From Limnomonas spitsbergensis (lineage: Eukaryota; Chlorophyta; Chlorophyceae; Chlamydomonadales): a stretch of 64,000 nucleotides of DNA. Made by a program: the position numbers and the translations under genes. Within the stretch, counting starts at the first letter, position 1, and every line of letters starts with the position of its first letter. Location: positions 3,472,001 to 3,536,000 of the forward strand of contig JAYJMM010000039.1 of assembly GCA_037349105.1 (NCBI GenBank). The letters are read 5' to 3'. The notes below the pieces were generated by a model that had not been told where the DNA came from, did not search any database, and saw only the letters and a list, made by a program, of their open reading frames with translations. This document shows, one piece after another, positions 18,390 through 63,967 of this stretch.

Positions 18390-18600
18390 CCACCTTGATT
18401 CCGAAAGGCTTGAACTCCGGGTCAGTGATGCGGATCCGCAGCTCCCCACCCAATGCACATTGAAGACTGGAATGCCCTCAATAATAATCGGAGAATTGTA
18501 ACCCCATGAAAAACCACCCCCAAAACAATGTCCTCCCTCACCTTTATTCCAAAAGGCTTGAACTCCGGGTTGGTGATGCGGATCCGCACCTCCCTACCCA
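18390..18600 (-). repeat. Two extra copies of the exon 10 3' half
   Basis: Each copy encodes a near-identical RIRIT(N/D)PEFKPFGIK and a potential donor (GTGAGG, then GTGGGG). Spacing from the true exon is about 141 and then 148 bp. The lower copy abuts the giant minisatellite. Confidence 0.9.
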
Positions 18601-18682
18601 CTTTCAAGTCTTCAATATTATAATATCTCTGATAATTTAAGTCCCACAGCCCCGACCCCCCAAAAGCATTGCAACCACTCAC

Positions 18683-18823
18683 CTTGACTCCGAAAGGCTT
18701 GAACTCGGGGTCGGTGATGCGGATCCGGACCTCCCCGCCTTCCACCGCCTCCTTGAGGTCAGCCAGCAGCCCGCTGATGTCCCCCTGCCCCGCCAGGCGC
18801 CTCCGCACTAGCTCAATCACAGC
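18683..18823 (-). CDS. Phosphohexomutase exon 10 (last exon in the window)
   Basis: 47 codons in phase 0: AVIELVRRRLAGQGD, LLADLKEAVEGG, EVRIRITDPEFKPFGVK, then donor GTGAGT. Two further copies of its 3' half follow at 18,536-18,600 and 18,392-18,440. Translation past the donor stays open in frame through the second copy and ends at 18,422. Confidence 0.88.
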
Positions 18824-21800
18824 CTACATCAGGGTTCAGGGTCCAGGGTTCAGCGTTCAGGGTTAAGAGTTCAGAGTTGAGGGTCCAGTTCTCCCCCCCC
18901 CCGGGAAGCTGGGGGACAGGGCAGGGCACATCGCGTGAATGAATCCGGGTTTGGAAACAGGACTCTAGGCTGTTCTCCCCCTGCCCCACCAGGCGCCTGC
19001 ACACCAGCTGGACCCCAGCCTAGCTCAGGGTTCAGAGGGCAGAGCTGAGGCTTATTTCCCCCCCCAGGGAGCGCAGGGGGAGAGGGGGCGGCACATCACG
19101 TTCAGGAAGCCGTACTTGGAAATTGGGCCAAGGTGGATTTTGAGATTCAGGAATTGCAATCATGAAAAGGTCCCGAAGAGCACAGAGAACAGCGGGGCCC
19201 ACGCATGCGTGACCCGCAGCACCATAGAGGGAGAATTGCCCAGCCTGGCCCTGTCACGGGTATCCATGAACCCTGAACCCTTACATCAGGGGAGATCACT
19301 TCCTATGCCTGATCCTGTTCCTTACACCTGCGGTTCGTATTCCCAACCGTCCCCACACTTGCAGTTCCAGGTATGAACAATCATCGAGGTACCACCCCAA
19401 CAGTTGCGCTCAGACACACTGTGACCTTTATCTCACCCTCCCTCCCCACACCTGTACTGCCAGGTATGAAACATCCTCCAAGCACACATTTTTTCTGGAC
19501 ATTCCCGTGACCCCTCCCTTCCCCCACACCTGTACTGCCAGGTATGAACCATCATCCAAGTACAACTTTTTCTTGACAAACCCGTGACCCCTCCCTCACC
19601 CCACACCTGTACTGCCAGGTATGAACCATCATCCAGGTACCAGTTCTTGACATCCCCCATGACCCCTCCCTCACCCCACACACCTGTACTGCCAGGTATG
19701 AACCATCATCCAGGCACAATTTGTTCTTAACGGCCCCATGACCCCTCCCTCACCCCACACACCTATACTGCCAGGTATGAACCATCATCCAAGTACCAGT
19801 TGTTCTCAACGTCCCCATGACCCCTCCCTCACCCCACACCTGTACTGTCAGGTATGAAACATCATCCAAGTACACGTTTCTTGCCCCTTCCCACCCCACA
19901 CACCTGTACTGCCAGGTATGAAACATCATCCAAGTACACGTTTCTTGCCTCTCCCTCACCCCACACACCTGTACTGCCAGGTATGAACCATCATCCAGGT
20001 ACCAGTTGTTCTTGACGGCCCCGTGGCCGCTCGTCTCCATCATCAAGTGGCACTCCTCGCCCGCCTTGTTCAGAGAGATGCCCTTGGAGATGACGTTCTT
20101 GTATCCGCGCTTAAAACTGGGATGAAGAGAGAAGAGGGGGGGGGGGGCGGATTGGGAGCAGGTCAGGGGGGGGGATGAGTAGAGCATCTTCTTCTAGCCG
20201 CGCTTGAAGCTGGGATGAAGAGAGAAGGGGGGGGGGGGACGGATTGGGAGCAGTTCAGGGGGCTCAGCATCCATGTCATACCGAGTTTCGTGTCCCAGCA
20301 CCCCCTTTCAACTTCTCCAACCCCAGCAGCGCCCTCCCCTCCCGCTCCAAAATCCTCCACCCCTAGATGCTTCCCTCTCTTGCCCTTGCCGCACTCTCAC
20401 CGCAAGTGCTTGCCCCCAAGGTGGTTGATGAAGTCCGTGAGCCCTAACCCTACACTACACCACCGCCTAGATACTTCCCCCACCGCCCCTTCCCCCCAGG
20501 TGCTACTCTTTCTCACCGCAGGTGCTTGCCCCCAAGGTGGTTGATGAAGTCTGTGAGTCCATTGCTGGTGACCGAGTCCGTGACGATGGTGGAGCTAGGG
20601 TGCTCCCTCAGCGTGATGGCCGACATAAGGGCAATGAACCGGTTGCTGAGGAGGGGGGAAATGGCCAACAGCAAGGGTTCAGGCGGTAACAGGGGTCGTG
20701 AAAACACATAGAAACGATGGCGGACATGAAGGCGGTAACCGGTTGCTGATGAGAGAGGGAGTGAAGGCAAGAGGCAAGGCGGCAACTGGACTCCTTCTGG
20801 GGGGTAGAGGGGGCGGGGGGGGACCCGTAAGATTCCCTCTAGGTGTGTGATTGCGGATATGAGGGCAATGAATCAGTTGCTGATCCGGGGGGGAGAAACA
20901 ACAGGGGTGTAGTGGCAGCAGGGGTTGGGGTGGAGATAGGGGCAAGGTGGCATCATGATGGCGGACATGAGGGCAATGGGCTGGTTGCTGCTCAGGGGGG
21001 AAGTGGCAACATCAAGGGGCAAGGCGCCAACATGACTCATCCTACTCATGATACATGAGTCATGACAAGCACATAGTTGTGTGATGGCTGGCTTACAGGT
21101 GATGGACTGGTGGCTGGTCAAGAAGAATACATGGACACCTGGACAACAGGGGGTGAGGCCGTGGTGGAGCAGCACCAGCAGGGGGGCATGGCGGCAGCAG
21201 GAGGGGAGGCGAGGGCCACTGCCGGCGCGCCCGAGTCATGAGACCAATACACAAGAGCACTTATGAGTAACAGACTTATGTGATGCATCTAGGTGCCTGC
21301 CTTGGTGCAAGACCTAGCTGCTAGGCAGCTGCCGCCTGGTGGGGGAAGGGAGGGGGATATGCACCCAGTGACGCAGGATGCTCACCTGTGTTGGTGCAGC
21401 ATGTAGCTGCTAGGCAGCTGCCGCCCAACAGGGGGAAAGGATATGGGGGATATGCACGCAGGGACGCAGGACGCTCACCTGTTGATCTCCCTCCCAGAGC
21501 TGTCCACAATGGCAGACCTGACAAGAAGGAGGGTCGGGGTCAGGGTTTGATTACTTCAAGGCTACGGTCAGGGTGTATACATCAGGGTCAAGGGTCAGGG
21601 GTCAAGGTCAGGGTCGGGATAAAGGCAAGGTCCAGGTTAAATATCTCTGGATTGGGAAAAAGTAAGTAATAGGGTCGGGACAAGGGCAAGGTGCAGGGTA
21701 AATATCTCTGGATTTTGGGACCCTACTTGAAGGTCAGGGTCCGGATTTTATACCTCAAGGGAAGGTCGGCAAGGGAGGGGAGGCCCACTGGCCCTGGACC

Positions 21801-24800
21801 CTAAGCCTGAAACCTGAAGGGCTTGCAAGGGCATGCAAAGGAAGGTCGGCAAGGGAGGGGTGATCCACTGGCCCTGGACCCCAAGCCTGAAACCCTAAGC
21901 CTGAGTCCCGGGTGCTACCTATCCACATCCTTGTCAAAGACGATGCGCAGGTCCGCCTCAAACTCCCGGACAGCGGCGGAGCTTGGTTGAGGGTGTAGGG
22001 TTTTAGGGTTTATACTCCATGCTTCAGGGGGGTCCACTAGCCTTACCTATCCACATCCGTATCAAAGACAATACCCAGGTCCGCCTTGGACTCCCGGACA
22101 GCAGCGGAGCCTGAGGCCATCGCGGAGGGATGCTCGGGGTTGGGCACGTGGTTGGGGAAGCTGCCATCGGGATCCAGGAAGCGGCTGCCGGTGACATCGG
22201 CACCCAGCGGGGCTAGGACCTGAGGGGCAATGGACATGTGAGATGTAGGAGGGAGGAGGGTGGGAGGGAGGAGAGGGAGGGAGAGAGAAGAGAGGGAGGG
22301 TCACATGGGAGAGGGAGGGTTACATGAGAGAGGTAGGAAGGAGGAGGGTGAGAGGGAGGAGAGAAGGGGTGTCACATGGGAGAGGTAGGAGACGTAGGAA
22401 AGAGGAGGGTCAGAAGGAGGACAGAGGGAGGGTGAGGGGTAGGTGGGAGGGAGTGTGAGGAGTAGGACAGAGGTAGGAGGGAGGGTGCTCAACCACAATT
22501 TGCAGCCCCGCTACCAGAAAGGCATCATACATCTACATCGCTGGTCATGTTGAAAGCACACACTTCTTACCATGTCAGCAAAGAAGCCTCCGGAGCCGTT
22601 GCCTGCATCCACCACAATGTGCAGCCCGGCCAGCGGGAACTGGTAGTTGTCCTTGCTGTCGACACCCTTCTTGATCAGGTCCCGCAGGAAGGCGGAATAC
22701 ACAGGCAAGAAGTCCACCTGAAGAGGTCGGGGGTTGATCTCCAGGGTTACACGTTAAGGTTAGGGTTAGAAGGTAGGGTGCATTGGCAGGAAGTCCACCA
22801 GGGGGAAGTTTGAGGGCTGAGGATGAAATCTCCAGGGTTACACGTTTAAAATAGGGTCAGAAGGTGGGGTGGATTGGCAGCAAGTCCACCTGATGAGGGG
22901 GGGGGGTAATCTTCAGGGTTACATGCTTGTGGTAGGGGTAGAAGGTGGGGTGTATAGGCAGGAGGACCGCCTGGGAGAAGTTTGAGGGTATAGGATTCAA
23001 TCTGCATGGTTCAATCTGGAATGTATGGCCAGAAAGGCAGAGCATACAGGCAAGAGGTGCACCTCGGATGGGGGGTGGATGTCGAGGGTTTATGATTAAA
23101 ATTACCGGCTTGAATGTGCAGAGTATGTCTAGAAAGGCAGGGTGCACAAGCACCTACCCATCCCCTGCAGCATTCCCCCACCCCCCCTTGGGGCACTCAT
23201 CTATCTGCGGCTATCGCACCTTTTGCGGCTCTCTCTTCCCCCCTGCATCCCTGGGTCTCTCTTCCTCCGATGGCTCTTCACCCCCCATCCCCCACCCGGC
23301 CGCTCTCCCCTCCTGCAGGTCTCCCCCCTACCTCCCGGGGCTCTTCCTCTCCCTCACCTGTTCTCCCCTGTGCACCAACGGGCGTCACCACCTGCGCAGA
23401 TGTGAGCAGGTGTCCTCCCTCTGACATACAGCCCTACCACCCTGCACAGCCCCCCTCCCCCCACCTGCAGCAGGTCTCACCTTCCTTACAGCAGTGGGCC
23501 TCACCACCAGGGCAGATATCAGCAGGTGGCCTCCCTCAGACATGCATTTCCCCCCCCTTCCCCCATGCAGCAGGTCTCACCTTCCCTACAGCAGTGGGCG
23601 TCACCGCCAGCGCGGATGTCAGCAGGTGGCCTCCCTCCGACATCGGCTCTCCAGCCAGGACACCAGCCTGGGCGCACGCCTGTAGAGAACGAGGGGGGCG
23701 GGGGGCATGTGGGCGCAGCGGCGCTGGAGGGCCCGGCACACTACTCATGTACACGCTGGGAAGGAGATGAAAAGATGGAGGGGGGCATGTGGGCGCAGCG
23801 ACGGTGTAGGGCCCGGCACACTACTCATGTACACGCTGAGAAGGAGATGAAAGGGTGGAGGGGGGCATGTGGGCGCAGCGGCGCTGGAGGGCGTGGCACA
23901 CTTCTCATGTACACGCTGGGAAGGAGATGAAAAGGTGGAGGGGGGCATGTGGGCGCAGCGGCGCTGGAGGGCCCGGCACACTACTCATGCACACGCTGGG
24001 AAGGAGATGAAAGGGTGGAGGGGGGCATGTGGGCGCAGCGGCGCTGGAGGGCTTAGCACACTTCTCATGTACACGCTGGGAAGGAGATGAAAAGATGGAG
24101 GGGGGCATGTGGGCGCAGCGGCGCTGGAGGGCCCGGCACACTTCTCATGTACACGCTGGGAAGGAGATGAAAGGGTGGAGGGGGGCATGTGGGCGCAGCG
24201 GCGCTGGAGGGCTTGGCACACTACTCATGTACACGCTGGGAAGGAGATGAAAGGGTGGAGGGGGGCATGTGGGCGCAGCGGCGCTGGAGGGCTTGGCACA
24301 CTACTCATGTACACGCTGGGAAGGAGATGAAAGGGTGGAGGGGGGCATGTGGGCGCAGCGGCGCTGGAGGGCTTGGCACACTACTCATGTACACGCTGGG
24401 AACGAGATGCAAAGGTGGAGGGGGGCATGTGGGCGCAGCGGCGCTGGAAGGGCCCGGCACACTACTCATGTACACGCTGGGAAGGACATGAAAAGGTGGA
24501 GGGGGGCATGTGGGCGCAGCGGCGCTGGAGGGCCTGGCACACTACTCATGTACACGCTGGGAAGAAGATGCAAAGGTGGAGGGGGGCATGTGGGCGCAGC
24601 GGCGCTGGAAGGGCCCGGCACACTACTCATGTACACGCTGGGAAGGAGATGAAAAGGTGGAGGGGGGCATGTGGGCGCAGCGGCGCTGGAGGGCCCGGCA
24701 CACTTCTCATGTACACGCTGGGAAGGAGATGAAAAGATGGAGGGGGGCATGTGGGCGCAGCAGCGCTGGAGGGCCCGGCATACTTCTCATGTACACGCTG

Positions 24801-27800
24801 GGAAGGAGATGAAAAGGTGGAGGGGGGCATGTGGGCGCAGCAGCGCTGGAGGGCCCGGCATACTACTCATGTGAACGGCTGCGGTGCCAAGGGGGACGGG
24901 GGTATGCAGACGGGGGGGGCGCTGAAGGGACCGACACACCATGCACGTACACGCCAAGAAGGGGACCTAATCTACATCGCCCTATGTCTGGGGGCTCAAG
25001 CAGCAGGCACTTTGCTGCACCAGGCCCCCCTCCCCCCCCCGGCCCCAAAGGCCGTGATGTAGCTGAATCATTGCTGAATCTCAGCCTGAAGCAAGCAATG
25101 GTGGCCAATCCACCTGTGTGCCCCCCTGCAGCGCCTAGGTGGTGCCACTCTTCTCCAGCAGCTGTGTGACGCCACTCTTTTCCAGCAGCTGTGTGATGTC
25201 ACCCTTTTCCAGCAGCTGTGTGATGTCACCCTTTTCCAGCAGCTGTGTGGAGTCACTCTTTCCCAGAAGATGTGTGATACCACTCTTTTCCACCAGCTGT
25301 GTTATGTCACCCTTTTCCAGGAGCTGTGCGGTGTCACTCTTTTCCAGCAGCTGTGTGATGTCAGTCCCCCAGCCGGCCTAGTTACAGGCTAGGGGCTCTA
25401 AACCTCAACCCTCCTGCGCGCCCCACTGAATCACCTTGGTGATTTCAGTCTTCTCTAGCCCGACCTAATTTAGGGTTCAGGGCTAACACCCTCAAACTTT
25501 GATCCGCCTCCCACATGCGTAGCCCTCTCTAGTAGCTGTGGAATATCAGCCCCCTACAGTCCACCTTTATTAGGGTTCAGGACTTCAACCCCCTGTACCT
25601 CCCCTCACCTGCGTGCCCCCCTCCAGCAGCTGAGTGATATCACCTGTCTGCAGCCCAACTACTTTAGGGTTCGGGTGTTAAAACCATCAAATCCCAACCC
25701 TAAAACCTCCTCCCACCTATGTGGCCCGGTCCAGCAGCTGAGTGACATCACCTTTCTACAGCCCCACCACTTAAGGGTTAAGGATTCAAAACCCTCTAAA
25801 CCCAACCCTAAACCCTCCTCCCACCTGCGTGGCCCCCTCCAGCAGCTGAGTGATGTCACCCTTCTCCAGCCCGCCATCAATCGTGAAGAATTTAAGCCCG
25901 TTGCTGTTGAACGGCATGTGCGAAGCGGTCAGCATGATGGCACCATCGTAATTACCTGCAGCAATTGATACGCAGTTGATCAGCAATTGATCAGCAATTG
26001 ATCAGCAGTTGATCAGCAGTTGATCAGCAGGTGATCAGCAGTTAATTTAGGGTGTTGAGTGTTTTTGGCACATGTTTGTTTCACCGCTTGGATCCCTCCA
26101 GAGCCGTCAGCATAATGGCACCATCGTAGTTACCTGCACAGCAGAAGACCGGCAGTTACTCTAGTTTCTTGAGTGTTTTTGCCGCATATCTATTTAGCAC
26201 TTGGATCCCCCCAAAGCCGCCGCAGACACCGAATATATACATATAAATTATCATTGCCCACCCCTTGGTCCACACCCTGGTCCACACCTGTGTGCAGCGT
26301 TTGTTTTGGTACTGAACGACTGTGCTTCACTAGAATAACAAAAAAATCTTCGATACCGCGCTTTGGTTTGAGTCGTACTCGGTACTAATGAAAACAAAAT
26401 CACTCGCGACCAAGTAGGATTGGTCAGCTGGCCAGGATGCTTGATCAGCATATATGGTAGGTGTGGTTATTAGTATGAATGGTTAGTATGAACGGTTAGT
26501 ATGGATGGGTAGGGTAATGGCACCGATGAATACGTGCAGGGAGGACATAGGGTTCAGGTTCAGGGTTTAGGGTGGGGCGCTCAGCATGATGGCACATTTG
26601 TACTTATGTACCGCCAGCATAGGCCAGGCAGCACACAGGCAAAAATAACAGGGTGCAGGGGTTTAAGGTATGGGATTCAGGGTATAGGGTCCAGGTTCGG
26701 GGGTTAAGGTTCAGGGTCTAGGATTCAGGTTCAGGGTTCAAGGCCATGATGCAATAGGCTGCCGGAGGCCGAGGCAGCAGCCGGGCCGCCGCTGCGCAGG
26801 TTCACTGATCCTGGGCGCACAAAATAATTATCGTCAGGGTTTAAGGTTCGGAGTTTGGGGTTCCGGTACTGGGGGTTCCGAACCGCGGATGGCGTGACAG
26901 GCTGCCAGAGGCCGAGGCAGCAGCCTGGCGGGTGCTACAAGAGACTGCCAAGGCAGCAGCCTGGCGGGTGCTACGAGAGACTGCCAAGGCAGCAGCCTGG
27001 CGGGTGCTACGAGAGACTGCCAAGGCAGCAGCCTTTCCAAGGCTACTAAAGGCAGCTGATCCCGGGACGCACAAGAGTCTACATTAGGGTTCAGGTTTCA
27101 GAGTCCAGGGCTCAACTTCCAGGATTTCAAACAAATGGCGTGACAGGCTGTCAGAGGCCGGGGCAGCAGCTTGGCGAGTGCTATGAGAGACAGCTGAACC
27201 CGGGAAGCATGAGACTTTACATTAGGGTCAAGGACGTAGACTCTGGGGTCAAGGTTCTGTGGGTTTCAAGCCCCCGATGGCGTGACAGGCTGCCAGAGGC
27301 CGAGGCAGCAGCCTGGCGGGTGCTACGAGAGACAGCTGATCCCTGGGCGCACACCTTTTATTACAAGGCTTTGGGTGAAGTGCTTGGGTAATGCTTGAGA
27401 AGTGCTTGTGGAGACACTGTTTCTATTGCCATGTGCACTGTTGAGGGGCTGACCTGCGGCCACCACTGGGCAGATTGGGACCGAATCCCTGACCAGCCAA
27501 CTGTCGTCGGTTCTAACATCAGCGCTCACTGCACCAAGCCCTGCCAGCTGCAGGCCGGATCGTAACTGGAGCGTTACTGAAGCGTAGCTAAAGCGTAACT
27601 GAAGCGTAACTGAAGCGTAAATGAAGCGTAGCTGCAGCGTAACTGAAGCGTAGCTGAAGCATCCCAACACAACAACTCAGGGGTGCGTCTGGCAGCTCAG
27701 AATGGAATCCTGTCTCTGAAGCCAAGCGTGATCATACCCTCCCTGCCTCCCCTAAACCCTCTTTCCCTGAAACCCTGAAACGCGCCCCCTTGCCCCCTAC

Positions 27801-30800
27801 ACCCCTTACGCATGCGCCTTTCCCTCCCCCTTCTCCTTTCCACCTTCACTCTTCCCCCTCTCGTAATCCCTTATGCCTCCTGCCTCATATCCCCCCCTCT
27901 GCCCCCTTACCCCTCCCCCCTTCACCCTAAACTCCCCCCCCTCCCTTAATCCCTTTCCCCCCATATTCCCCTTATACCCCCCCCCCTACAAGCCTGCCCC
28001 CTGTCCCCCTTTCCCCCACCTGTCGCGACCACGCTGTAGGACATGAACGACGTGGTGGGGATGCTGACCGCATCCCCCTCGGCGCCGGCCTCCCCCTCCC
28101 TACACACCCCAGCCACCCACCCTTCGCCCCCCCTTGTCCCCACCTGTCGCCACAAACCAGTGGAACATGCACAGCATGGTGGCCATGGCAAACATATTCC
28201 ACTCCACTCACCCCAGCCACCCACCCGCACCTGCCGCCATGATGCTGTGGCATATACAAGGCATGTGGCGATGCCAAACGCACCCCCCCCCGTTCCGACC
28301 TCCCCCTCCACTCATTCCTACCACCCACCCACCCTGCCACCCGCCCCCACCTGTGGCCACAATGCTGTAGAACATGCACGGCGTGGTGGCGATGCCAAAC
28401 GCACCCCCCTCCGATCCGACCTCCCCCTCCACTCATTCCTACCACCCACACCTCTTGCCACCCGCCCCCACCTGTGGCCACAATGCTGTAGAACATGCAC
28501 GGCGTGGTGGCGATACCAAACGCACCCCCCTCCGGGCCGACCTCTCCCTCCACTCATTCCTACCACCCACCCCCCCTGCCACCCGCCCCCACCTGTGGCC
28601 ACAATGCTGTAGAACATGCACGGCGTGGTAGCGATGCCAACGCACCCCCCTCCGGTCCGACCTCTCCCTCCACTCATTCCTACCACCCACCCCTCCTGCC
28701 ACCTGCCCCCACCTGTGGCCACAATGCTGTAGAACATGCACGGCGTGGTGGCGATACCAAACGTGTCCACCTCTGCGCCAGCAGCTGCCAGGCCAGACAC
28801 GATCGCCGCCTCCAGCAGGGGTCCAGAGATGCGCGGGTCGCGGCCCAGTGACACACGGACTGGGCCGGTGGCAGGCTCAGTCCCGGCAGCCTCCGCCGCT
28901 GCTGCGCGCCGCGCCTGCAGCCACGTCGCAAAGGAGTGCCCGATGAAGAATGCGATGCCGGGCGTCAGGCTGACAGGCTCGTTCGGGACACCTGCGTGTG
29001 GATGGAGGGTGTGTGGTGTGTGTGGGGTGTAGTGTGTGGTGTGTGGTGTGTGGGGGGGGTATGGCTGGTGGGGGTTGGGGTAGGGAAAGATTGTGGGGGG
29101 AGAGGAGGGGGCTCGCTGGGGACGCCTGGGCATGTGATGTAGGGCGTGGGCTCGTTCGGGACATCTGGGCATGGAGAGAGGGAGGGTCTGGGTAGGGGAG
29201 GTGCGGGTTGAGGTTGGGGTAGGGAAAGGTGATGGGGGGGGAGGGGGCTCGCTGGGGACGCCTGAGCATGTGATGTAGGGCGTGGGCTCGTTCGGGACGC
29301 CTGGGCATGGAGAGAGGGAGGGTCTGGGTAGGGGAGGTGCGGGTTGAGGTTGGGGTAGGGAAAGGTGATGGGGGTGTTCGCTCGCGGTGTAGCTGCCAGG
29401 TGCATGGCATAGTACGTACTGGGCGTATGGTTTGGGCGCTGAACATGTATGCAGGGTTTCAACCCCCCACTTAGGCAACAATTTCCTAGATTGAGACCTC
29501 CTCTTGTGCTGCTGGGCGAATCTGGCAGGTCTATGAGGATGGCAAGGACAGCCAAGGTAACCGTGTAGGTCAGCCGGAATCCTGAACCCTCAACTAGGCA
29601 GGCAAAATCCTAAACCCTCAACTAGTCAGCCAAAATCCTGAACCCTCAACTAGGCAGGCAAAATCCTAAACCCTCAACTAGGCAGGCAGAATCCTGAACC
29701 CTCAACTAGGCAGGCAGAATCCTAAACCCTCAACTAGGCAGGCAGAATCCTAAACCCTCAACTAGGCAGGCAGAATCCTGAATCCTCAACTAGGCAGGCA
29801 GAATCCTGAACCCTCAACTAGGCAGGCAGAATCCTGAACCCTCAACTAGGCAGGCAGAATCCTGAACCCTCAACTAAGCAGGCAAAATCCTGAAGCCTCA
29901 ACTAGGCAGGCAGAATCCTAAACCCTAAGCTTGGCAGACAGAATCCTGAACCCTAAGCTAGGCAGGCAGAATCCTGAACCCAAAGCTAGGCAGACAGAAT
30001 CATGAACCCTAAACTAGGTATCAAAAAATGTTAACCCTAAACAGCAATAAGCAGGCATTCCGGGCTGCATTACAGGCACTATGTAGCCCTTCAGAAAAGG
30101 GCTTTTGCGTGTCTACGCGTAGACGTTGCAAGAGTAGCAGCATTTGCAACAAAGGAGGGCAATTCAAAAACAGCCCCCCTCAGATCCCATTATCGTGCAG
30201 CTACCCAGCAGGATCACCCACATGCTATCAGGCCAGCAGTGGTGTTCAGATTATTCAGAGCACTCTAGTCCTGGCACATCACGGTGTAAGGCTGGGGGCC
30301 TGATGCAGCTGGCCCTGCTGCTTGGGCCGCCAGCCAGGGGCTGTTCAAGCTTTCGTCACATTTGAACCAGGGGTGGCTGCCTGGCCGCCCATTACGTGTG
30401 GCGCGGCGCACGCTGAAAGAAAAAACAGTGGTGGATAGCTGCCTTCCACCATGCGGGCTGAGGTAAGTGTGTGTTTGAAACGGGGGGGGGCAGGGGTGGG
30501 GGGGGGCTGACCTGATAGGACCCAAATGCTGCGCTGGAAAAAACGCTTGAATCCCCTTTTCAATGTGGGACCCAAATCGAGCTCTCATGGCTGCTTGGGC
30601 CACCCCCGCCTGCCTCCCCTTCCTCGAGTTCCCCAACCAACATCCTAACTAAACGCCTTTAAACGCACAATCATCCAGCGCTTTAGCATTCAGATACCAA
30701 TGTCTTTCCCTCGCCCATGCAGCCTGCTCCATCAGGTCTGCCCAACTAACTGTTTTTCCAACTGCCCTACTAACCGCCCTTTCAAAACTTGAGTGTCCAA

Positions 30801-45873: not shown

Positions 45874-48800
45874 CTGCAAAAGCACACAGGGTGGGCAAAG
45901 GCAGTTATAAAGAAAATGCGATAAAGCAGAATAAATGCGGTGGGCCCAGGGCAGGCAAGTCAGCACCAGTCAGCTCTCCGTCAGCTTCCATCAGCTTCCA
46001 GCCAGCTGCCTGTCAGATCCAGTCAGCTCCCAGTCAGCAACCAGTAAGCTCATCACAGAGCTTTGTCTCACAATCAGAAGGCAGACAGGGCTGCATCTTT
46101 TTATAATCACCTACGAAAGCAAATTTGAACTGTACCCCAAGGGCGCAGTAAGATGTGCAGCAGCAGCGGCAGCAGCCCTAATCCCTAAACCCTAGCAGCA
46201 GCAGCAGTAGCAGCAGGGGCCATGGAGAAGAAATAAGCCACAGAAAAATAGGGGCGGCGGGGTCTTGTTGAGAATCCAAGTGGGACCAAATAATGTACCC
46301 TCTAGCTTGTACCCTGTTGCTTGTACCCTGTTGCTTGTACCCTCTAGCTTGTACCCTCTAGCTTGTACCCTCTAGCTTGTCCCATCTAGCTTGTACCCTC
46401 TAGCTTGTACCCTCTAGCTTGTCCCATCTAGCTTGTACCCTCTAGCTTGTACCCTCTAGCTTGTAACCTCTAGCTTGTACCCTCTAGCTTGTACCCTCTA
46501 GCTTGTACCCTCCAGATTGCACCCTCTAGCTTGTACCCTCTAGCTTGTACCCTCCAGATTGCACCCTCTAGCTTGTACCCTCTAGCTTGTACCTACCGGT
46601 ATGTTGGTGTTTTGAGTGCAGACATACATCTCGACGGCCGACGGCATGGAGGCAAGCGGCAGGCCCTCCGAGTATGAGGCGTAGGCACCACACCCAAGGT
46701 CCAGCACCTTGAAGAGGTTCTGCCAGAAGAGGCGGAAGTTGAGGGAGGCGGTCAGGTAGGTGACGCCAGATGGCATGTAGTAGAAGCCAGTGAAGGTGAG
46801 GACGGACACGGCGGGGGAGGAGGAGGAGGCGTTGGTGCTGGAGGCGCAGGTGGTACGGTACATGCCGCGGCCTGTTGTGAAGCTGTTGAGCGCGTGCAGC
46901 AGGGATTCGCAGTCTGTGTCAGAGTCGAAGATACGCTGCGGGCTGGACTGGAACGTGAACAGTTTGATGGTCGCGAAGGTGTCCGTGGCAGGGGGGGAGG
47001 GGCTGGGGGGAGGTGGGGGAGGGGAGGGCGGCAGCGGAGGGGGCGGGGAGGGGCGGGGAGGAGAGGGGGAAGGCGGCGGCGGGGAAGGGGGCAGCGGCGG
47101 CGGGGAGGGGCGGGGAGGTGGTGGCGACGGCGGTGGCGGCGGCGGGAGTGGCGGTGCCGGCGGCTTCATGCGGTCCGAGCAACGGGGCGGGACCGTCGCG
47201 GAGATCAGGCCGAGCGTATTCTCCTTGTCGAAGGCGCCGAGCGTGATCGGCCGGTTGGTCACCATGTTGCCGCATCCGCGGCCGTACCCGTAGTCGAATG
47301 CGCCGTCGGCCGACATGGACCCGAGCGTGCCGTACAGGTCGGCCGTGAAGTTGAGGTAGAGGTGCCAGAGGTCGGCGTCTGAGCGGTCCGTGGCAGGGCA
47401 GTTGGAGCCGTCCTGGCGGCACTGGCAGCCACTGTTGATGGCTTGCGCGATGGGCATTGCGGAGTGGGTGCTGGTGTAGGGGTTGCAGCTCTGCTTGGTG
47501 TTGACCTTGTAGGTGAGGCATGAGTACCTGACATTGGTTCAGGGTGTAAAAAAGGTTAGGGTTGAGTGTCGACCTTGTAGGGTAGGCATGCGTATCTGAA
47601 ATGGGTTTAAGGTTAGGGTTGGTGTTGACCTCGTAGGTGAGGCATGAGTAGTACTTGACATGTACAGGGGAGGAGGGAAATGAGGGATAGGATTTTGTTG
47701 TTGGTGTTGCCGCTGCTGCTCTGAATTGTGTTGACCTAAAAGGTGAGGCAGGCACTCATGTCTGCCTCAACTTTTAAGCCATGAGTGCCTGCCTGTCTGG
47801 CGGGTAGCAGGTGGATAGAAATTGGGGGAACAGGGTTGGAATGGTGTTGCTGTTTTTGAGGTGTGATTCATCCACCAAGCAGCCTATTTCAATAGCGCCG
47901 CGCAAGGTTGGGTCGTTACATCCCCTGGTAGCACTGACTGCTGCTTAGCGCAAACAAGGGGTTCGGGTTTGCACTGTTAACAAATAAATTGCCAGGGAAT
48001 TGGAATATACCCTTTCCCTGACATACGGTATATACAGTACTGCTCATTGTAGACTGTACCAGACTGTCAGCTGAAATTCAGCTGACACCTGGCCTCTTGT
48101 GGACAGAGATATGTGCATCAATCCCGGCTGTTGTGATTATTTAGTACAGACTAGGTCACATTCGGCAGGCCATTGGTCAGCCGCCACTGGACCAATAGGG
48201 ACAAAAACTTGAGCAACCTACGCCCGTTGGGCGCTGGCCCCCTAGCAGCAGTATGGCATGCATGCTGCACCCAGCCCGTAGACCAGGTTTAAGGGGGCTT
48301 TTCGCTGACGCACCTTCAGTAAGATAAAGAAGGAAGACGCTAAAAAGTGTGGCTTTTAAGGAAGTACCATGGTAGTGAACAGGGCAGGTTCCGCCCGACC
48401 GCACTGTAGCACGGCTTAAACGCTGGCCTGAGGCCGGGGCCCAGTGGGGTTAGAGGCATGCCTAGTCGCCTTACCAAGACTAATGTGGTCCAGCCAACCC
48501 TAGCCTTGTGTCGCTGTTTGCCCCTGCTGCCTACCTGCCGGACGCCAGTTGGTCGTTGTAGTTGGTTTGGGTGGTGTACACACTCCCGTTCAAATCTGGC
48601 CAGGCGAACATGCTGGCGCCAAACGCGGAGTTGCCCAGGTTGGGCAGGGTAATCAGTGGGAACCCGGGGTATTGCTCAGGGTAGTCTGGACCGTCCAAGG
48701 CGACCGTGACATACAGCTGGTCTGCATAGTCCTTGAAGACGTAGATTGAGCCGTATGTGCTGAAGTTCACGCTGTCGGTGAGGTTGATGCGTGTCACTTC

Positions 48801-50998: not shown

Positions 50999-50999
50999 A

Positions 51000-52980: not shown

Positions 52981-53039
52981 CCTCCCCACCTGTCAATCTT
53001 ATGAAAGTGAGCACAATCAAATTCGAGCCAACTCGGTAA

Positions 53040-53645: not shown

Positions 53646-53684
53646 CTAAATGGAGAGCCAGGGGCAAGGCGCCGGTCAGGGTGG

Positions 53685-57970: not shown

Positions 57971-57978
57971 ATGACAGC

Positions 57979-58128
57979 TCAGTCGATGTACATGGGCATG
58001 CCCTTCAGCGGCCCGATGGGGATGACCGTAGGGTGCTTGACGCCCTGAGAAGCGCCGTTGACCGCCCGCCACTTGAACCGCTTGCAGAGCAGCGACAGCA
58101 CGACACGCGCCTCGAGCATGGCCAGGTG
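57979..58128 (-). CDS. P450 last exon
   Basis: It encodes HLAMLEARVVLSLL to GPLKGMPMYID and stops with TGA at 57,979-57,981. The acceptor is CATTTAG. Confidence 0.94.
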   Translation of the reverse strand, partial: HLAMLEARVVLSLLCKRFKWRAVNGASQGVKHPTVIPIGPLKGMPMYID

Positions 58129-61100
58129 CTAAATGGAGAGCCAGGGGCAAGGCGCCGGTCAGGGTGGGCGGGTCAGGGTGGGCAGGGCCAGGTGCTACAT
58201 GAGAGCCGGGGACAGGGCAGCAGTCAGGGTGGGCCGGTCAGGGTGGGCAGGGTCAGATGCTGCATGGGAGACGGGGGCGGGGCGGCGGTCAGGGTGAGCC
58301 AGTAAGGGTGGGCAGGGCCAGATGCTACATTAGAGCCGGGGACGGGGCACCGACCAGGGTGGGCAGGTCAGGGTGGGCCGGTCAGGGTGGGCAGGGTCAG
58401 GTGCTGCATGGGAGACGGGGGCGGGGCGGCAGTCAGGGTGAGCCAGTAAGGGTGGGCAGGGCCAGATGCTACAACGGAGCCGGGGACGGGGCACCGTCCA
58501 GGGTGGGCACGTCAGGGTAGGCAGGTCAGGGTGGGCCGGTCAGGGTGGGCAGGGTCAGGTGCTGCATGGGAGACGGGGGCGGAGCGGCGGTCAGGGTGGG
58601 CAGGGGCAGGTGCAGCATGGGAGACGGGGACGGGGCACCGGTCAGGGTGGGCAGAGGCAGGTGCTTCATGGGAGACGGGGGCGGGGCGGCGGTCAAGGTG
58701 GGTAGGGGCAGGTGCTGCATGGACAGCCAGGGGCGGGGCGGCGGTCAGGGTGGGCAGGTCAGGGTGGGCAGGGTCAGGTGCTATATGGACAGCCGGGGGA
58801 AAGGCGCAGGTCAGGGTGGGCAGGGTCAGGTGCTTCATATGGAGCCAGGGGCAAGGCGCAGGTCAGGGTGGGCGGGTCAGGGTGGGCAGGGGCAGGTGCT
58901 GCATGGGAGACGGGGGCGGGGCGGCGGTCAGGGTGGGCCGGTCAGGGTGGGCAGGGGCAGGTGCTGCATGGGAGACGGGGGCGGGGCGGCCGTCAGGGTG
59001 GGCAGGGCCAGGTGCTGCATGGACAGCCAGGGGCGGGGCGGTGGTCAGGGTTGGCGGGTCAGGGTGGGCAGGTGAGGGTGGGCGGGTCAGGATGGGCAGG
59101 GGCAGGTGCTGCATGGGAGCTGGGGGGCGGGGCGGCGGTCAGGGTGGAATCAGGAGAGTGTGTGCGGAACGTGTGAATCAGGAGGAATGTAAAGACCAGG
59201 AACTTGTGTTATCCGGTGGGATGTGTGAACTGAGAATACGAGGAACCAGGTGGCATGTGTGGGATCACAAGGGATCCAGTCAGGCGAGCGGTTTCAGCTG
59301 TCCATTGCAGGGTGGTTCAGGGTGGTTCCTCTCTCTCTACTGACCCAGCCAGTTGCAGGGCCCCACATTTTTGAAGTTCTCTCCCCCTCTCTCAACTGAC
59401 CCAGACGGTTGCGAGGCCCCAGGGTTTGAGGTCATCTCCCTCACCTGACCCAGGCAGTTGCGAGGCCCCTGGATGAATGGGACGAACATGTAGGCGCGGA
59501 CAGACTCGTCAAACTTATCGTACTCTCCATCGGGCATGAAGCGGTTGGGGCAGAAGGCGTCCGGCTGGTCGTACATGTCATGCGTGCCCTGCGATTGCAG
59601 GGTTAGGGCTCACAGGTCAGGAGCGTATGAAGCGGTTGGGGCGGAAGGCGTCCAGCTGGTCGTACCGTATGTGTCGTCTGTGCGGTATATTGCCTGGGTA
59701 GGAGCAGTCAGCAGGCCACGCTGGTCAAAATGCAATGAAGAAAACATAGTCTCTGTTCGTTCGGAATCTGGATTAGTCCATATTCCTTTTCCTTCAATAA
59801 CTTTGATTCGTGGTGTAATTAATCTGAACCACGACCTTTGTTGGAGCTGCGGCAAGCCCTTACTGTTTTTATGGGCAGGAAACTTGTTGTTTCTTCACCT
59901 GTCAATTGCAGAGATAAGAAGCTTCGTTTAGCGCTAATTACCGTGAGTTAAATGTGTTTTCAATGCTCTGTCAAACCTCTTCAGTACCGTCCCACCCACC
60001 CGATTCGGTGACTAACTTTGTGCTTCTGTTGCAGGCACTTTCACGCGATAGACTAGAAACCCTGAGTTTCTCACATGCATCATGACGACGAAGACAATTT
60101 CCATGGGATTTTTACTGCGGCTTCATCCTCCTACAACCCTCTACTGTCGTACATGCAGAAAATAAACCCTAGCCTTTACCTTAAGGATACAAGCCACCAT
60201 TGTCCCCGCCGGGACCTTGTGCCCCAGCAGCTCGTCGTCCTTGGCCAGCGTCCGGGTCACCACCGGAACCACGCTGTACTTGCGTAGCGCCTCCTTGAGC
60301 ACGCTGAGCGTGTACGTCATGCCGTCCACCTCGCGCCGGGTGGGCTCTGCCTCGGCCTTGCCGAAGGTGGACTGTGCCTCTTCACGCACCTGCACGGCAG
60401 CAGAGAAGGATAGGGAAAGGAACGTAAGGAGTAGGGGGACGAGAGGAGTGGAGGGACGGGAGGAGTGGGGGGACACCCCAATTAATTTTCTTTTGTCCAG
60501 CGCCCATACGCCGCAAGCAGGACAATCGGCCATACATTTTCCCTCCCTCCCATTTTTGTTGGCAAAAAACGGGCTGTGACTCTCCTGGCAGGTAGGAACG
60601 TGGCAGCAGAGATGACGGGGGGACGGGTAAGCAGAAGCATCCGAGTGACGCAGGAAATGGGATGGGGGGCGGGTCTGGGGCATTCGAGTGACGCAAGAAA
60701 TGGGATGGGGGGCGGGTCTGGGGTATCCGAGTGACGCAGGAAATGGGATGGGGGGCGGGTCTGGGGCATCCGAGTGACGCAGGAAATGGGATGGGGGGCG
60801 GGTCTGGGGCATTCGAGTGACGCAGGAAATGGGATGGGGGGCGGGTCTGGGGCATCCGAGTGACGCAGGAAATGGGATGGGGGGCGGGTCTGGGGCATTC
60901 GAGTGACGCAGGAAATGGGATGGGGGGCGGGTCTGGGGTATCCGAGTGACGCAGGAAATGGGATGGGGGGCGGGTCTGGGGCATCCGAGTGATGCAGGAA
61001 ATTGGATGGGGGGCGGGGCTAGGGTAGCCGAGTGACGCAGGAAATGGGATAGGGGCGGGTCTGGGGTTTGGGGACGACTGCAGCAGGTGGGATTCAAATG

Positions 61101-63967
61101 CGGGATAATGCAACAGGAGAGCAATTAAAGCGCGGAGGAGGAGGTGCGGGAGAATCAGTGCTGTGCCAATTACGGCCCTTATCGTGGCTGAACTACGTAG
61201 CTGAGTTCCAGTTGCCGAAATTTCAAGGCAAAGTCAGCTACTTTACCAGTAAGGGACCGTAATTATTGACACCAGTTACACGTTTCTGAATTACGGCGCA
61301 CTTGCACAGCGCTGAGGAGAATGCATGAGCAAAAGGGTCGAGGCGTTGAGGAGCGGGATAATGCAGCAGTGGAGGGGGCTGGCGAGGTCAGGAGCGGGCG
61401 CCGGAGGCGTCCGAGAGGACACCAGACAATCCTTCCTTGAATCCCCCAGGTGGCGCATTCAGTCCTTCATTTATTAAATCATTTATTTACTGAATTTATT
61501 CCAGTTATTTACCGTTGTATTCCAATTATTCATGGCATTTACGGTACGGTAGCCCAGAGCCCCGCACCTTATCCATATACCCCCAGGTGGCGCATTCATT
61601 TATTTATTTACTGCATTTAAACAAACAGTATTGACCGTTTGTACTCCAATTATTTCTCGCATTTATTCCAGAGCCCCGCACCTTATCCATGTACTCCTGG
61701 GATTGAGAGAGTTCAAACATCGACCAGGTCAGCATGGCCGCCGATGTCTCGTGGCCGGCCAGCAGGAAGGTCTTGACCTCGTAGCAGAGCTGCAGCTCCA
61801 GTGCCGCATCCCACACAGTGCCTGCCTCCTGTGAAGAAGCAGGACATGCGGCAAGGGGGCGGGGTGAGGGTCGGAAATGGGCACAGCAGGGATCGTTGGA
61901 AGGTCTTGGCCTTGAAACAGAGCTGCACCTACAGGGCCGCATTTTCGAATTTGGCACTTCTGTCCCCCCACTCACCTGTCCTGCCGAACTACAGGCTGAA
62001 ACCCCCCCATGTCCATGCTAGACGGCTACCCACCTCAATGGACTCATTCCATTACTCTGTATTTTCCATGCACGTTCAAATTTTACTCTGCTGCCCCTTG
62101 CCCTGCCCCCCCCTCCCCCCCCTCTGCCTGACCATAGGCTGGATACTATCCAAGTTGGGCACAGCTACCCACCTCAAGCGAGTCCATGATCCGGTCCAGA
62201 ATCAGTATGGTCACTCGAGTCCATGACCACAGGCTGGATACCATTCCAAGGCACCGCTACCTACCTCAAGCGAGTCCATGATCCGGACCCTAAACCCACC
62301 TCAATGGAGTCCATGATCCGGTCCAGGATGTCCTTGCGCTCCCGCTTAACGCCACTCTGCCTGGAGCTCCACCGCGCCCTGTCAGTAAGAGGGAGGAGGG
62401 TTGCAGATTTAAGTATCCACCCTTGGATCCAATGCACCCTAAGCTCCAACGCGCCCAGGTATGGCAGGCCCTGCTGTCAGCAGCTACAGCCATGGCAAGC
62501 CCTGCTTCTCACAGCTACAGCCATGGCATGCCCTGCCTCTTACAGCGACAGCCATGGCAGGCCCAGCTGTCAGCAGCAACTGTCATAGCAGACCCACTTT
62601 TTGTCAGCTACAGCCATGGAAGGCACTGCTGTTGTTAGGTTGGTAAAGGTCCCTCTCAGCCTGCCTGGTTTTCGACAATGAGCCCACCTCAGACCATCCC
62701 ACACTTGCAAAGGCCCAATTGGGATCAAATCTTTCGCGGCGTACAGACTACTGGTGGTGTAGTTTAGCGTTAGACGTTCAGTTTTTAGGCTTAAGCGGCT
62801 TACAGAGACAGCTTTCAGCATGGCTGGCGGTGCATGTGGCCTCATGCCAGAGGCCAGATCGGTAGAAGAATGGTGGCCAGACCATGAAGAAAGAAAACAC
62901 AGGCCCATGCACCTGGAAGAAGCTGAAGGGGAACTCTTTGGTTTATCGAGTTACCCTTCGGTTACCGAGGAACTCTTCGGTTACTCTTAGGTTTACGAAG
63001 TTACTCTTTGTTAACCGACTTTGGCAGGCCACCGGGCAGTCACCCCTTGACGCCGATGGGGACCCAAACTTGACCGGCCATCCGCCGTAAGCCCAAGCGG
63101 CAGGCACAGTATTGTGCCAATTATGGTCCTTACAGTGGCTGACATACGTACCTGAGTATCAGTCCCCGTAATCTCAAGGCAAAATATCAGCTACTGTCAC
63201 CAAAAAGGGGCCGTAATTACTTACATGGTTTTTGAATCACAGCGCAATTGAACAGCAATCATTGCAGGGGCCATCCCAGCCGTAGGCCATGATGTGGGCG
63301 AGTTACAGCACAAGCACCGTCAAACGATCAGCGGAAACGGCATTCAGTCCCTGTCAGTCGCACCCACACCTGAAGAAGTTGACGAGGTACTCATTGAGCT
63401 GTTTGATGCGCGAGCGGAACTGGAACCAGGCCGGGGTGGGCAGGTACTGGCGGTACGGTCGAAGTACGCGGATGTTGGCCTCCTCCATGACAGGCAGGTA
63501 CAGCATCGGGAACACCTAGAGGGACACAGAGGGGAGGGGGGGTTACGTGTTCAGGAGATGCAGGTACCTCGGGAACACCTAGAGGGACACAGGGGGGAGG
63601 GGGGGTTACGTGTTCAGGAGATGCAGGTACTCTGGGAAAATTGGGATAAAGGATGGGACAGGGCGTGTTAGTGGTGTAAGCAGGGAGGGACAGGGTGTTG
63701 ATGAGGGGCATGACACTAAACGGGGTACGGGTTACAGGTTCAAGTATTGCCAACCCTGCACATTTGTATACAAAATATGAGAGCCCACATCTTACCTTTC
63801 CATCTCTAGCCGAAACCACAATACCACACCTGGAAAAAATACCCACCCCCTCCTCCAACCGCACCCCTTGCAGGGTGTTGGGTTTATGCCAAGGTTAAAC
63901 CCTACACCCTCGTCCACACCTTGTCACACTCTTCAGGCTCCATGCTGAGCACGGCCTCTCCGATCAC
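57979..63967 (-). CDS. Cytochrome P450, seven 3' exons (5' part outside window)
   Basis: A heme-thiolate monooxygenase. Exons 63967-63920, 63515-63370, 62378-62300, 61828-61682, 60389-60180, 59588-59445 and 58128-57979 join in phase to about 307 codons, roughly the C-terminal 60% of a normal P450. Landmarks in order are the I-helix oxygen-binding LLAGHETSA, K-helix KEALRKY (ExxR), PERF-type FCPNRFMPDGEYD, heme loop FIQGPRNCLGQ with the Cys ligand, then EARVVLSLLCKRF and IPIGPLKGMPMYID before TGA. The form resembles plant and algal P450s of the CYP97/CYP746 region, but I cannot assign the subfamily or substrate. Membrane anchor and N-terminus lie beyond 64,000. Confidence 0.95.
58140..59135 (-). 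repeat. ~50-70 bp minisatellite of P450 last-exon acceptors, about 15 copies
   Basis: Each unit holds, on the minus strand, CAG or TAG followed by CACCTGNCC, the exact start of the last exon, then CTGCCCACCCTGAC-type intron. Landmarks lie at 58,191, 58,258, 58,323, 58,402, 58,466, 58,560, 58,610, 58,661, 58,712, 58,780, 58,832, 58,898, 58,960, 59,013 and 59,107. Confidence 0.95.
59340..59442 (-). repeat. Two copies of the heme exon 3' end
   Basis: Degraded copies of the RNCLGQ coding end and donor at 59,341-59,366 and 59,396-59,421, about 55 bp apart. Confidence 0.88.
59445..59588 (-). CDS. P450 heme-binding exon
   Basis: It encodes FCPNRFMPDGEYDKFD and FVPFIQGPRNCLGQ; the Cys is the heme ligand. 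Donor GTGAGG. Confidence 0.96.
59618..59668 (-). repeat. Internal fragment copy of the heme exon
   Basis: A 45 bp piece encoding YDQLDAFRPNRFI lies upstream of the true exon. Its Arg matches the PERF-type Arg consensus better than the Cys in the genuine exon (FCPNRF). Confidence 0.85.
60180..60389 (-). CDS. P450 K-helix exon
   Basis: It encodes LSVLKEALRKYSVVPVVTR (ExxR) and LLGHKVPAGTMVAC. Acceptor GTGCAG, donor GTAAAG, 70 codons. Confidence 0.95.
60640..61075. repeat. 43 bp minisatellite, 10 copies
   Basis: Highly regular units built of GAAATGGGATGGGGGGCGGG and TCTGGGGCATCCGAGTGACG, in the intron before the K-helix exon. It makes long proline-rich frames on the minus strand that I do not regard as coding. 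Confidence 0.95.
61167..61264. mobile_element. ~98 bp MITE-like element, copy A
   Basis: The ends are inverted: CAATTACGGCCCTTA and, at the other end, TAAGGGACCGTAATT. The interior shares GTGGCTGA, CTGAG and AAGGCAAA...TCAGCTACT blocks with the copy at 63,118. Confidence 0.7.
61440..61680 (-). repeat. Copies of the I-helix exon donor region in AT-rich repeats
   Basis: Two units of about 125 bp share CCAGGTGGCGCATTCA and long TTTATT-rich text. The end of the unit near 61,560 copies the MDKV donor context of the I-helix exon. Confidence 0.8.
61682..61828 (-). CDS. P450 I-helix exon
   Basis: It encodes FLLAGHETSAAMLTW, the oxygen-activating A/G-G-x-E/D-T motif. Acceptor TTCACAG, donor GTGCGG. 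Confidence 0.95.
61890..61950 (-). repeat. Partial copy of the I-helix exon 5' half
   Basis: A degraded copy of the ALELQLCYEVKTF coding stretch lies about 135 bp upstream of the exon. Confidence 0.82.
62028..62295 (-). repeat. Four copies of the DILDRIMDSIE exon end
   Basis: The GTCCATGATCCGG(T/A)CC text and the CCACCTC donor context recur near 62,033, 62,171, 62,213 and 62,265. Confidence 0.85.
62300..62378 (-). CDS. P450 exon (DILDRIMDSIE)
   Basis: 79 nt, acceptor CTGACAG, donor GTGGGT. It leads into the I-helix exon. Confidence 0.88.
62455..62632. repeat. 31 bp tandem repeat, about 6 copies
   Basis: Units start CAGCCATGGCAAGCCCTGCT and end in CAGCTA; the third and fourth copies are more diverged. 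Confidence 0.9.
63118..63218. mobile_element. ~100 bp MITE-like element, copy B
   Basis: Inverted ends CAATTATGGTCCTTA and GGGGCCGTAATTA, the same interior blocks as copy A. A more distant relative lies at about 51,190-51,300 and its duplicate at 55,673-55,783. Confidence 0.7.
63370..63515 (-). CDS. P450 exon (F/G-helix region)
   Basis: It encodes VFPMLYLPVMEEANIR, LRPYRQYLPTPAW and IKQLNEYLVNFF. Acceptor CTCTAG, donor GTGTGG. Confidence 0.9.
63520..63665 (-). repeat. Two copies of a P450 exon 5' end
   Basis: A unit of about 66 bp with the CTAG acceptor, GTGTTCCCG start and GGGGGGTTACGTGTTCAGG text is repeated upstream of the exon that starts at 63,515. Confidence 0.88.
63920..63967 (-). 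CDS. P450 exon (VIGEAVLSMEPEE)
   Basis: A 48 nt exon in phase 0, acceptor TGCAG, donor GTGTGG. It is the most 5' exon I can define in the window. Confidence 0.75.

What the first reader, a model, noticed from the sequence alone, without database searches (positions are those of the whole stretch)
18390..63665. Introns of three genes are built from tandem copies of the neighbouring exon ends
In the phosphohexomutase, the P450 and the matrix glycoprotein, at least 17 exon boundaries are followed in the intron by tandem units made of that exon's last or first 15-60 bases, its splice site and some intron. Examples are exon 2 3' (six copies, 121 bp), exon 9 3' (seven), exon 5 5' (five), P450 last exon 5' (about 15) and P450 heme exon 3' (two). 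Identity falls with distance from the exon. This points to a recurring process, such as slippage or unequal exchange anchored at splice junctions, that lengthens introns and multiplies splice sites. Inference: intron growth by exon-edge duplication is general in this genome.
Basis: partly seen in the sequence, partly recalled or inferred. Interest (0 to 1): 0.88.

Follow-up and report, generated by a model that had tools for sequence, protein, structure and literature searches.

The report
Exon-edge "mirage" repeats in algal introns
In a green alga, probably a snow alga, introns hold tandem copies of the neighbouring exon ends together with their splice sites; the copies likely come from ordinary local DNA duplication that survives only where splicing or the stop codon hides it, a pattern already described in lancelets as "mirages".

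Summary
In the phosphohexomutase (PGM) gene, exon-only 30-base probes from 7 donor and 5 acceptor edges recur in the adjoining intron, up to 8 times; P450 and pherophorin-like boundaries add four. Some details fail: identity does not fall steadily with distance, and some counts differ. A process anchored at splice junctions is not supported. In 76 introns outside PGM (25 loci, 16 contigs), junction windows are repeated about as often as intron-interior windows (0.070 against 0.074), and exon windows over 75 nt inside almost never (0.002). A simulation of uniform placement plus coding constraint predicts a junction/interior ratio of 1.02, junction anchoring 3.14; observed 0.95 (0.59-1.66). The P450 stop-codon edge is copied into the 3' flank too, and that is no splice site. 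In those 76 introns 8 of 152 edges have a copy, so the pattern occurs on other contigs but is not the rule; PGM is extreme. Lancelet "mirages" are the same kind of structure. Best reading: generic tandem duplication filtered by coding constraint. Novelty is modest: a green-algal case and a quantitative placement test.

The parts
28713..28991 (-). PGM exon 2 (real); its 3' edge heads the 121-bp array
   Evidence: open frame across exons 2-10; PGM_PMM_I domain
28020..28712 (-). five intronic copies of the exon 2 3' edge plus donor (30,30,30,24,24 of 30; all GT)
25825..25955 (-). PGM exon 3 (real)
25956..26607 (-). region with two copies of the exon 3 5' edge at 178 and 652 nt (27, 24 of 30; AG and AC)
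25114..25824 (-). region with four copies of the exon 3 3' edge (25,29,22,22 of 30; all GT)
23581..23679 (-). PGM exon 4 (real)
23481..23580 (-). copy of the exon 4 3' edge (27/30), 100-bp unit
22571..22717 (-). PGM exon 5 (real)
22718..23062 (-). region with copies of the exon 5 5' edge (2 at >=22/30, 3 at >=21/30)
22047..22219 (-). PGM exon 6 (real)
21919..22046 (-). copy of the exon 6 3' edge (25/30, GT kept, no intron-side homology above the null)
21479..21517 (-). PGM exon 7 (real); a 93-bp repeat follows with weak exon-side homology, not counted
20517..20645 (-). PGM exon 8 (real)
20646..20987 (-). region with two copies of the exon 8 5' edge (24, 25 of 30; both AG)
20401..20516 (-). copy of the exon 8 3' edge (29/30, GT)
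19969..20116 (-). PGM exon 9 (real); one copy of its 5' edge at 93 nt (21/30)
19359..19968 (-). eight copies of the exon 9 3' edge (24-30 of 30; all GT)
18683..18823 (-). PGM exon 10 (real); one copy of its 5' edge at 196 nt (23/30)
18394..18682 (-). two copies of the exon 10 3' edge (25, 28 of 30) just before the 23-bp satellite
62173..62299 (-). copies of the P450 exon 62300-62378 3' edge (23, 20, 27 of 30)
59340..59444 (-). two copies of the P450 heme exon 3' edge (23, 22 of 25), donors lost (TT, TA)
58129..59444 (-). P450 last intron: 11 AG|CACCTG copies of the last exon 5' edge
57979..58128 (-). P450 last exon up to and including the stop codon
57787..57905 (-). two copies of the P450 stop-codon edge in the 3' flank (31/40, 30/40; maximum of 200 shuffles 23)
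47528..47757 (-). three copies of the pherophorin-like exon (46597-47527) 5' edge (25, 28, 22 of 30)

Best explanation
Exon ends and their splice sites are repeated in the adjoining introns, and these copies likely arose by ordinary local tandem duplication at positions indifferent to splice sites, of which selection would keep only those that splicing or the stop codon hides. Inferred steps: a segment of about 60-200 bp is duplicated head to tail (slippage or unequal exchange). A copy inside an intron is invisible. A copy across a donor leaves the first donor with the full exon, and a copy across an acceptor leaves the last acceptor with it, so the protein is unchanged and the intron grows by one unit. 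Duplications wholly inside an exon would change the protein and are lost. Some arrays then expand by further unequal exchange. The real edge is held by selection while the copies drift, so exon-side and splice-site homology stays visible longer than intron-side homology. Shown by calls: the copies, their placement statistics and their divergence pattern. Not shown: the duplication chemistry and the actual splicing.
For: Placement: in 76 introns outside PGM, junction windows are repeated at 0.070, intron interior at 0.074 and exon beyond 75 nt at 0.002. There is no peak at the junction: outward from the donor the rate goes from 0.058 at the junction through 0.046, 0.092 and 0.111 to 0.140 deep in the intron; at acceptors from 0.084 through 0.102, 0.101 and 0.093 to 0.130; exon windows more than 45 nt in are at 0.000 and 0.011.

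Model test: with drift, uniform placement plus coding constraint gives junction/interior 1.02 and exon-edge/interior 0.90. Anchoring gives 3.14 and 2.90. Observed 0.95 (0.59-1.66) and 0.78 (0.36-1.64).

Junction repetition tracks interior repetition (Spearman 0.59) and interior repetition tracks intron length (0.56).

Units cross the junction: 17 of 22 exon-edge copies (best copy per edge) continue into intron sequence above the 95% null. Conversely 8 of 14 copies chosen by junction-adjacent intron sequence continue into the exon.

The stop-codon edge of the P450 is also copied (31/40 and 30/40; 200 shuffles at most 23).

Using the decoys would mostly break the protein: 23 of 25 PGM decoys with an intact GT or AG would cause a frameshift or premature stop. 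Exon-side identity is 0.81, donor positions +1 to +5 0.65-0.87, intron side 0.43-0.47 ungapped, as expected if the real edge is constrained and the copy is not.
Against: In PGM junction windows are repeated more than interior ones (0.631 against 0.459; CI of the difference -0.11 to 0.43). TCP-1 shows acceptor copies in 5 of 15 introns and donor copies in none at 22/30, an asymmetry the model does not predict.

Exon windows beyond 75 nt are rarer than the uniform model says (far/interior 0.03, CI 0.00-0.07, against 0.20), so something further limits long exon parts, or the assumed unit lengths are too large.

A cruder simulation without drift gave 0.54 for uniform and 1.27 for anchored placement, with the observed 0.95 between. 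The verdict thus rests on allowing for constraint on real edges, with rates I chose (real edges at 0.15 of the neutral rate, divergence up to 0.30).

In 5 of 22 cases no intron-side homology is seen. In L033 the exon part is 28/30 identical, so plain decay is a poor reason there.

Published work on Chlamydomonas reinhardtii and Volvox carteri reports more tandem repeats near intron-exon junctions (PMC3887541, passages read), unlike my profile.

Only one stop-codon edge showed copies; the other one tested, pherophorin-like, reached 21 of 40. No RNA evidence was available. The sample is three conserved families plus one gene chosen for its repeats.
Confidence: 0.76

Rival explanations
1. A process anchored at splice junctions (for example breaks or slippage at transcription- or splicing-linked structures) duplicates exon edges preferentially.
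For: PGM junction windows exceed interior ones (0.631 against 0.459). In four TCP-1 introns (L029, two in L030, L033) the exon edge is copied while 30-mers of the intron interior show no repeat. Published: more tandem repeats near intron-exon junctions in two green algae (PMC3887541 passages).
Against: Across 76 introns the junction is not enriched and the anchored model's ratio of 3.14 lies outside the observed 0.59-1.66. A stop-codon edge is duplicated as well. The PGM excess is not significant and its gene was picked for its repeats.
Confidence: 0.11
2. The copies are maintained because they work: decoy or alternative splice sites that regulate splicing of these genes.
For: All 20 donor copies at 22/30 or better in the eight PGM introns keep GT, and five exon 2 copies keep the whole 9-base donor.
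Against: In the wider set 30 of 37 donor copies keep GT and 14 of 21 acceptor copies keep AG, counted by hand from the listing. P450 heme copies have TT and TA. 23 of 25 intact PGM decoys would break the frame or stop early. Copies in one array are not independent.
Confidence: 0.07
3. RNA-mediated or template-switch insertion of exon pieces only, without intron sequence.
For: In 5 of 22 copies no intron-side homology exceeds the null (L029, L031[220-281], L033, L015[349-439], PGM exon 6).
Against: 17 of 22 copies do include intron sequence, and exon-internal pieces were not found (0 of 520 beyond 75 nt). Copies joining two exons were not searched for.
Confidence: 0.03
4. Assembly artefact: long-read repeats mis-assembled at exon edges.
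For: Reads were not available to check; arrays are hard to assemble.
Against: Copies differ by many substitutions and indels, and the reported assembly used PacBio long reads with repeated PacBio and Illumina polishing (PMC11228838, passages read). The match of this genome to that paper is inferred from size and contig number.
Confidence: 0.02

Closest known systems
'Mirage' minisatellites of lancelets (Adh3, globin BflGb6/BflGb9, troponin C, PGBD5)
   Same: Tandem repeats that span an exon-intron boundary, at 5' or 3' edges, units of about 10-160 bp, many copies keeping AG/GT, reported not to disturb splicing (passages of PMC3087553; passage of PMC3902484).
   Different: Here in a green alga, at 12 boundaries of one gene, and with a stop-codon edge of another gene affected too. 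Splicing and copy-number instability were not tested here.
Intron gain by tandem duplication of AGGT-bearing exon segments
   Same: Local tandem duplication that splicing hides (search listing; passage; the papers themselves not read).
   Different: No new intron is seen to be made here: units span existing junctions, and the exons join at edges that keep the frame.
Tandem-repeat-rich introns of Chlamydomonas reinhardtii and Volvox carteri
   Same: In these green algae introns are the densest class for tandem repeats (PMC3887541, passages read).
   Different: That survey counts repeats by region and reports more near intron ends; it does not, in the passages read, describe repeats carrying exon edges.
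Introners
   Same: Both add intron sequence in protists and algae (recalled).
   Different: Introners are dispersed related introns (recalled); here edges rarely match introns of other loci (3 of 10856).

Membership tests
[quoted passage not shown]
   16 boundaries in the window with exon-edge copies; 17 of 22 copies tested include both exon and intron sequence
mirage minisatellites | both 5' and 3' exon boundaries affected | tested here: met
mirage minisatellites | many copies keep AG/GT splice signals | tested here: met
   30 of 37 donor copies GT, 14 of 21 acceptor copies AG, counted by hand from the listing
mirage minisatellites | cluster borders escape homogenisation | tested here: inconclusive
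   outermost copies are the most diverged in the exon 2 and exon 9 arrays; no tree was built
mirage minisatellites | normal mRNA splicing despite the decoys | not testable with these tools
   no RNA data; only the open frame of the spliced model
mirage minisatellites | copy-number instability between haplotypes or cells | not testable with these tools
   one assembly only
intron gain by tandem duplication | the intron itself derives from a duplicated exon segment | tested here: not met
   for the copies examined: units cross existing junctions, and exon probes beyond 75 nt find nothing in the introns (0 of 520)
introners | near-identical introns dispersed among loci | tested here: inconclusive
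   edges against other loci's introns: 3 of 10856; whole introns were not compared

The most novel reading that the evidence does not exclude
In this alga local tandem duplication is a one-way ratchet: coding constraint removes duplications inside exons but lets introns swallow copies of their own exon edges, so introns grow mainly by copying themselves and their borders, and the splicing machinery must reject many near-identical decoy sites by always taking the exon-proximal one.
Probability: 0.3. Interest if true: 0.65.

Novelty: new member of a known kind. Interest (0 to 1): 0.42.

Why it matters
It extends a curiosity of lancelet genes to a green alga and turns it into a rate question: junction-spanning duplications look like the part of intronic duplication that coding constraint lets through. 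The arrays also make natural splicing tests. Five copies of the exon 2 donor are identical to it over nine bases, yet coding continuity requires the first, so they ask how a spliceosome picks one of many equal sites. The idea that introns lengthen by repeated self-duplication can be tested directly with the published transcripts.

Tried and rejected
Junction anchoring was tested by window statistics and by simulation. One search, a crude simulation without drift, gave uniform 0.54 and anchored 1.27 with the observed 0.95 between them. I judged it inadequate because it ignores that real edges are constrained, and replaced it (456 simulated loci per model). Both are reported because the answer depends on that correction. 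At stricter thresholds the observed ratio falls to 0.64 (24/30; interval 0.32-1.30) and 0.47 (26/30; 0.05-1.76).

The idea that homology stops exactly at the junction (from ungapped views) was mostly removed by gapped extension but stands for 5 of 22.

Finding the true last exon confirmed it, with 11 copies by exact word, not about 15. A first regular expression for it found only 1 copy.

Sample limits: of 83 intron models 7 were dropped for poor splice models. One of those (L030 [253,312]) had an edge match of 24/30 and an exon-internal match of 28/30. One exon pair had no model. Exon pairs with profile gaps outside -20 to 15 residues were skipped (nine listed; they were skipped unlisted). 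6 of 14 planned TCP-1 regions were fetched, picked before their sequence was seen. One of the 76 introns (L028) lies in the window's own P450. Families PF00133, PF00225 and PF00171 were asked once and never answered.

Whether the C-terminal PGM exons lie beyond the satellite could not be checked, because the genome search with P0001 did not complete.

No row listed in them was about exon-edge repeats in a green alga. That covers only this library, those terms and the rows shown (for example 12 of 122 and 15 of 164). The 2002 Adh paper (PMC117041) is not held.
Full report
What it is in. The window is G000:C39:3472001-3536000 of a genome of 260,226,709 bases in 124 contigs. The snow alga Limnomonas spitsbergensis was published with 260.248 Mb in 124 contigs, a mean intron of 788 bp and 6.7 exons per CDS (PMC11228838: abstract, passages and sections 18-20 read). 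That this is the same genome is inferred from size and contig number. The genes discussed lie on the minus strand: a PGM/PMM-type phosphohexomutase (PGM_PMM_I domain), a cytochrome P450, and a proline-rich gene that I call pherophorin-like from memory (no call names it).

The gene model. PGM exons 2-10 join in one frame with no stops. The 428-residue product is 77% identical over its length to its best relative (unnamed). Named hits near the top of the 120 listed include Volvox, Haematococcus, Edaphochlamys and Chlamydomonas proteins, some called phosphoglucomutase. True exon edges are therefore known. Exon 1 and the C-terminal exons are not placed.

The repeats. Exon-only 30-base probes find copies in the adjoining introns at 22/30 or better for 6 of 8 donors and 4 of 8 acceptors of the eight complete PGM introns. 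Exon-internal probes give 4 of 42, and edges against introns of other loci 3 of 8792. Exon 2 has five donor copies and exon 9 eight. Of 27 copies, 25 keep GT or AG, and 23 of those 25 would cause a frameshift or premature stop if used; 3893 of 9023 intron bases lie between an edge and its farthest copy. Identity does not fall steadily away from the exon. In the exon 2 and exon 9 arrays the best match to the exon is the second and the fifth copy, and the outermost is the worst, as expected of arrays turned over by unequal exchange (inference).

Elsewhere in the genome. From family searches for P450, HSP70 and TCP-1 I fetched 26 gene regions (one is the window's P450) and modelled 83 introns between exons contiguous in the family profile. 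I kept 76, from 25 loci on 16 contigs. Edges with a copy at 22/30 or better: TCP-1 0 donors and 5 acceptors of 15 introns, HSP70 1 and 0 of 52, P450 1 and 1 of 9, that is 8 of 152 edges. Exon-internal probes beyond 75 nt gave 0 of 520. Edges against other loci's introns gave 3 of 10856, and against non-adjacent introns of the same gene 0 of 396. By length: 1 of 35 introns under 300 nt, 5 of 26 at 300-599, 2 of 15 at 600 or more. So the pattern is real beyond the contig but uncommon, and PGM is extreme.

Is it anchored at splice sites? Windows across junctions are repeated at 0.070, intron-interior windows at 0.074, exon windows 30-45 nt in at 0.058, and exon windows over 75 nt in at 0.002. The profile shows no peak at the junction; on the donor side it rises into the intron (0.058 to 0.140), on the acceptor side it is nearly level (0.084 to 0.130). 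Junction repetition correlates with interior repetition (0.59), and interior repetition with intron length (0.56). A simulation that places one duplication uniformly, rejects those that alter the coding sequence and lets copies drift predicts junction/interior 1.02, exon-edge/interior 0.90 and far-exon/interior 0.20. The anchored version predicts 3.14, 2.90 and 0.55. Observed: 0.95 (0.59-1.66), 0.78 (0.36-1.64) and 0.03 (0.00-0.07). The first two fit uniform placement; the third is lower than either model. A simulation without drift put the observed ratio between the models (0.54 and 1.27), so the conclusion rests on allowing for constraint on real edges, with rates I chose.

The unit is mostly DNA-level and junction-crossing. 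Gapped extension finds intron-side homology above the 95% null in 17 of 22 copies (about one of 22 would pass by chance). Copies chosen by the intron next to a junction continue into the exon in 8 of 14 (5 of 5 donors, 3 of 9 acceptors). In 5 of 22 the intron side is not detectable; L033, with 28/30 exon identity, is the hardest to explain by decay.

A boundary that is not a splice site. A 40-base probe ending in the P450 stop codon recurs twice in the 3' flank (31/40 and 30/40; 200 shuffles reached at most 23), while four internal 40-mers of that exon reach at most 21. The pherophorin-like stop edge gave only 21 of 40. One case is thin, but it is what a coding-constraint filter predicts and a splice-anchored process does not.

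Divergence pattern. Over 26 arrays (37 donor and 21 acceptor copies), exon-side identity averages 0.81 and the intron side 0.43-0.47 ungapped; donor positions +1 to +5 stay at 0.65-0.87. The exon side is favoured by the way copies were chosen, since the probes were exonic. One constrained and one drifting partner on the exon side, and two drifting partners on the intron side, would explain the rest (inference). It would also give exon edges a longer visible life than intron-only repeats, which may be why they catch the eye.

Known work. [quoted passage not shown] PMC3902484 passage). The structures here meet the sequence features of that kind; splicing and instability could not be tested. Tandem repeats are densest in introns in two green algae and reported as more frequent near intron ends (PMC3887541 passages).

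Verdict. Real, beyond chance and not confined to the contig, but a known kind of structure. It is best explained by general local tandem duplication seen through the filter of coding constraint rather than by a splice-junction mechanism. On re-checking the calls I lowered confidence slightly (0.78 to 0.76) and raised the anchored rival (0.10 to 0.11), because the profile is not quite flat and the model verdict depends on drift rates I chose.

Noticed in passing
1-18373: An array of about 806 copies of a 23-bp satellite unit abuts the PGM gene right after two copies of the exon 10 3' edge. The PGM C-terminal exons were not found in the window, so the satellite may lie in an intron.
   Followed up: partly
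49199-58169: A tandem duplication of about 4.5 kb at 99.8% identity over 4488 bases (49199-53686 against 53685-58169); the second copy holds the P450 last exon, so the first holds a near-identical copy of it.
   Followed up: partly
L033, intron before TCP-1 profile 393-466: An exon-edge copy 28/30 identical to the real edge at 116 nt with no intron-side homology, which plain tandem duplication does not explain well.
   Followed up: partly
L029, L030, L031, L033 (TCP-1 loci): The five acceptor copies at 22/30 or better lie 104-142 nt upstream of the real exon; no donor copies at 22/30 were found in these 15 TCP-1 introns.
   Followed up: no
many exons in the window and in L009-L034: Many exons begin with GT, so the acceptor reads AG|GT and a copied edge carries a possible donor as well (seen; not counted).
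   Followed up: no
23700-24872: An 80-bp repeat of 14.6 copies in the PGM intron between exons 3 and 4, with no clear exon part: an intron-only array beside the exon-edge arrays.
   Followed up: no
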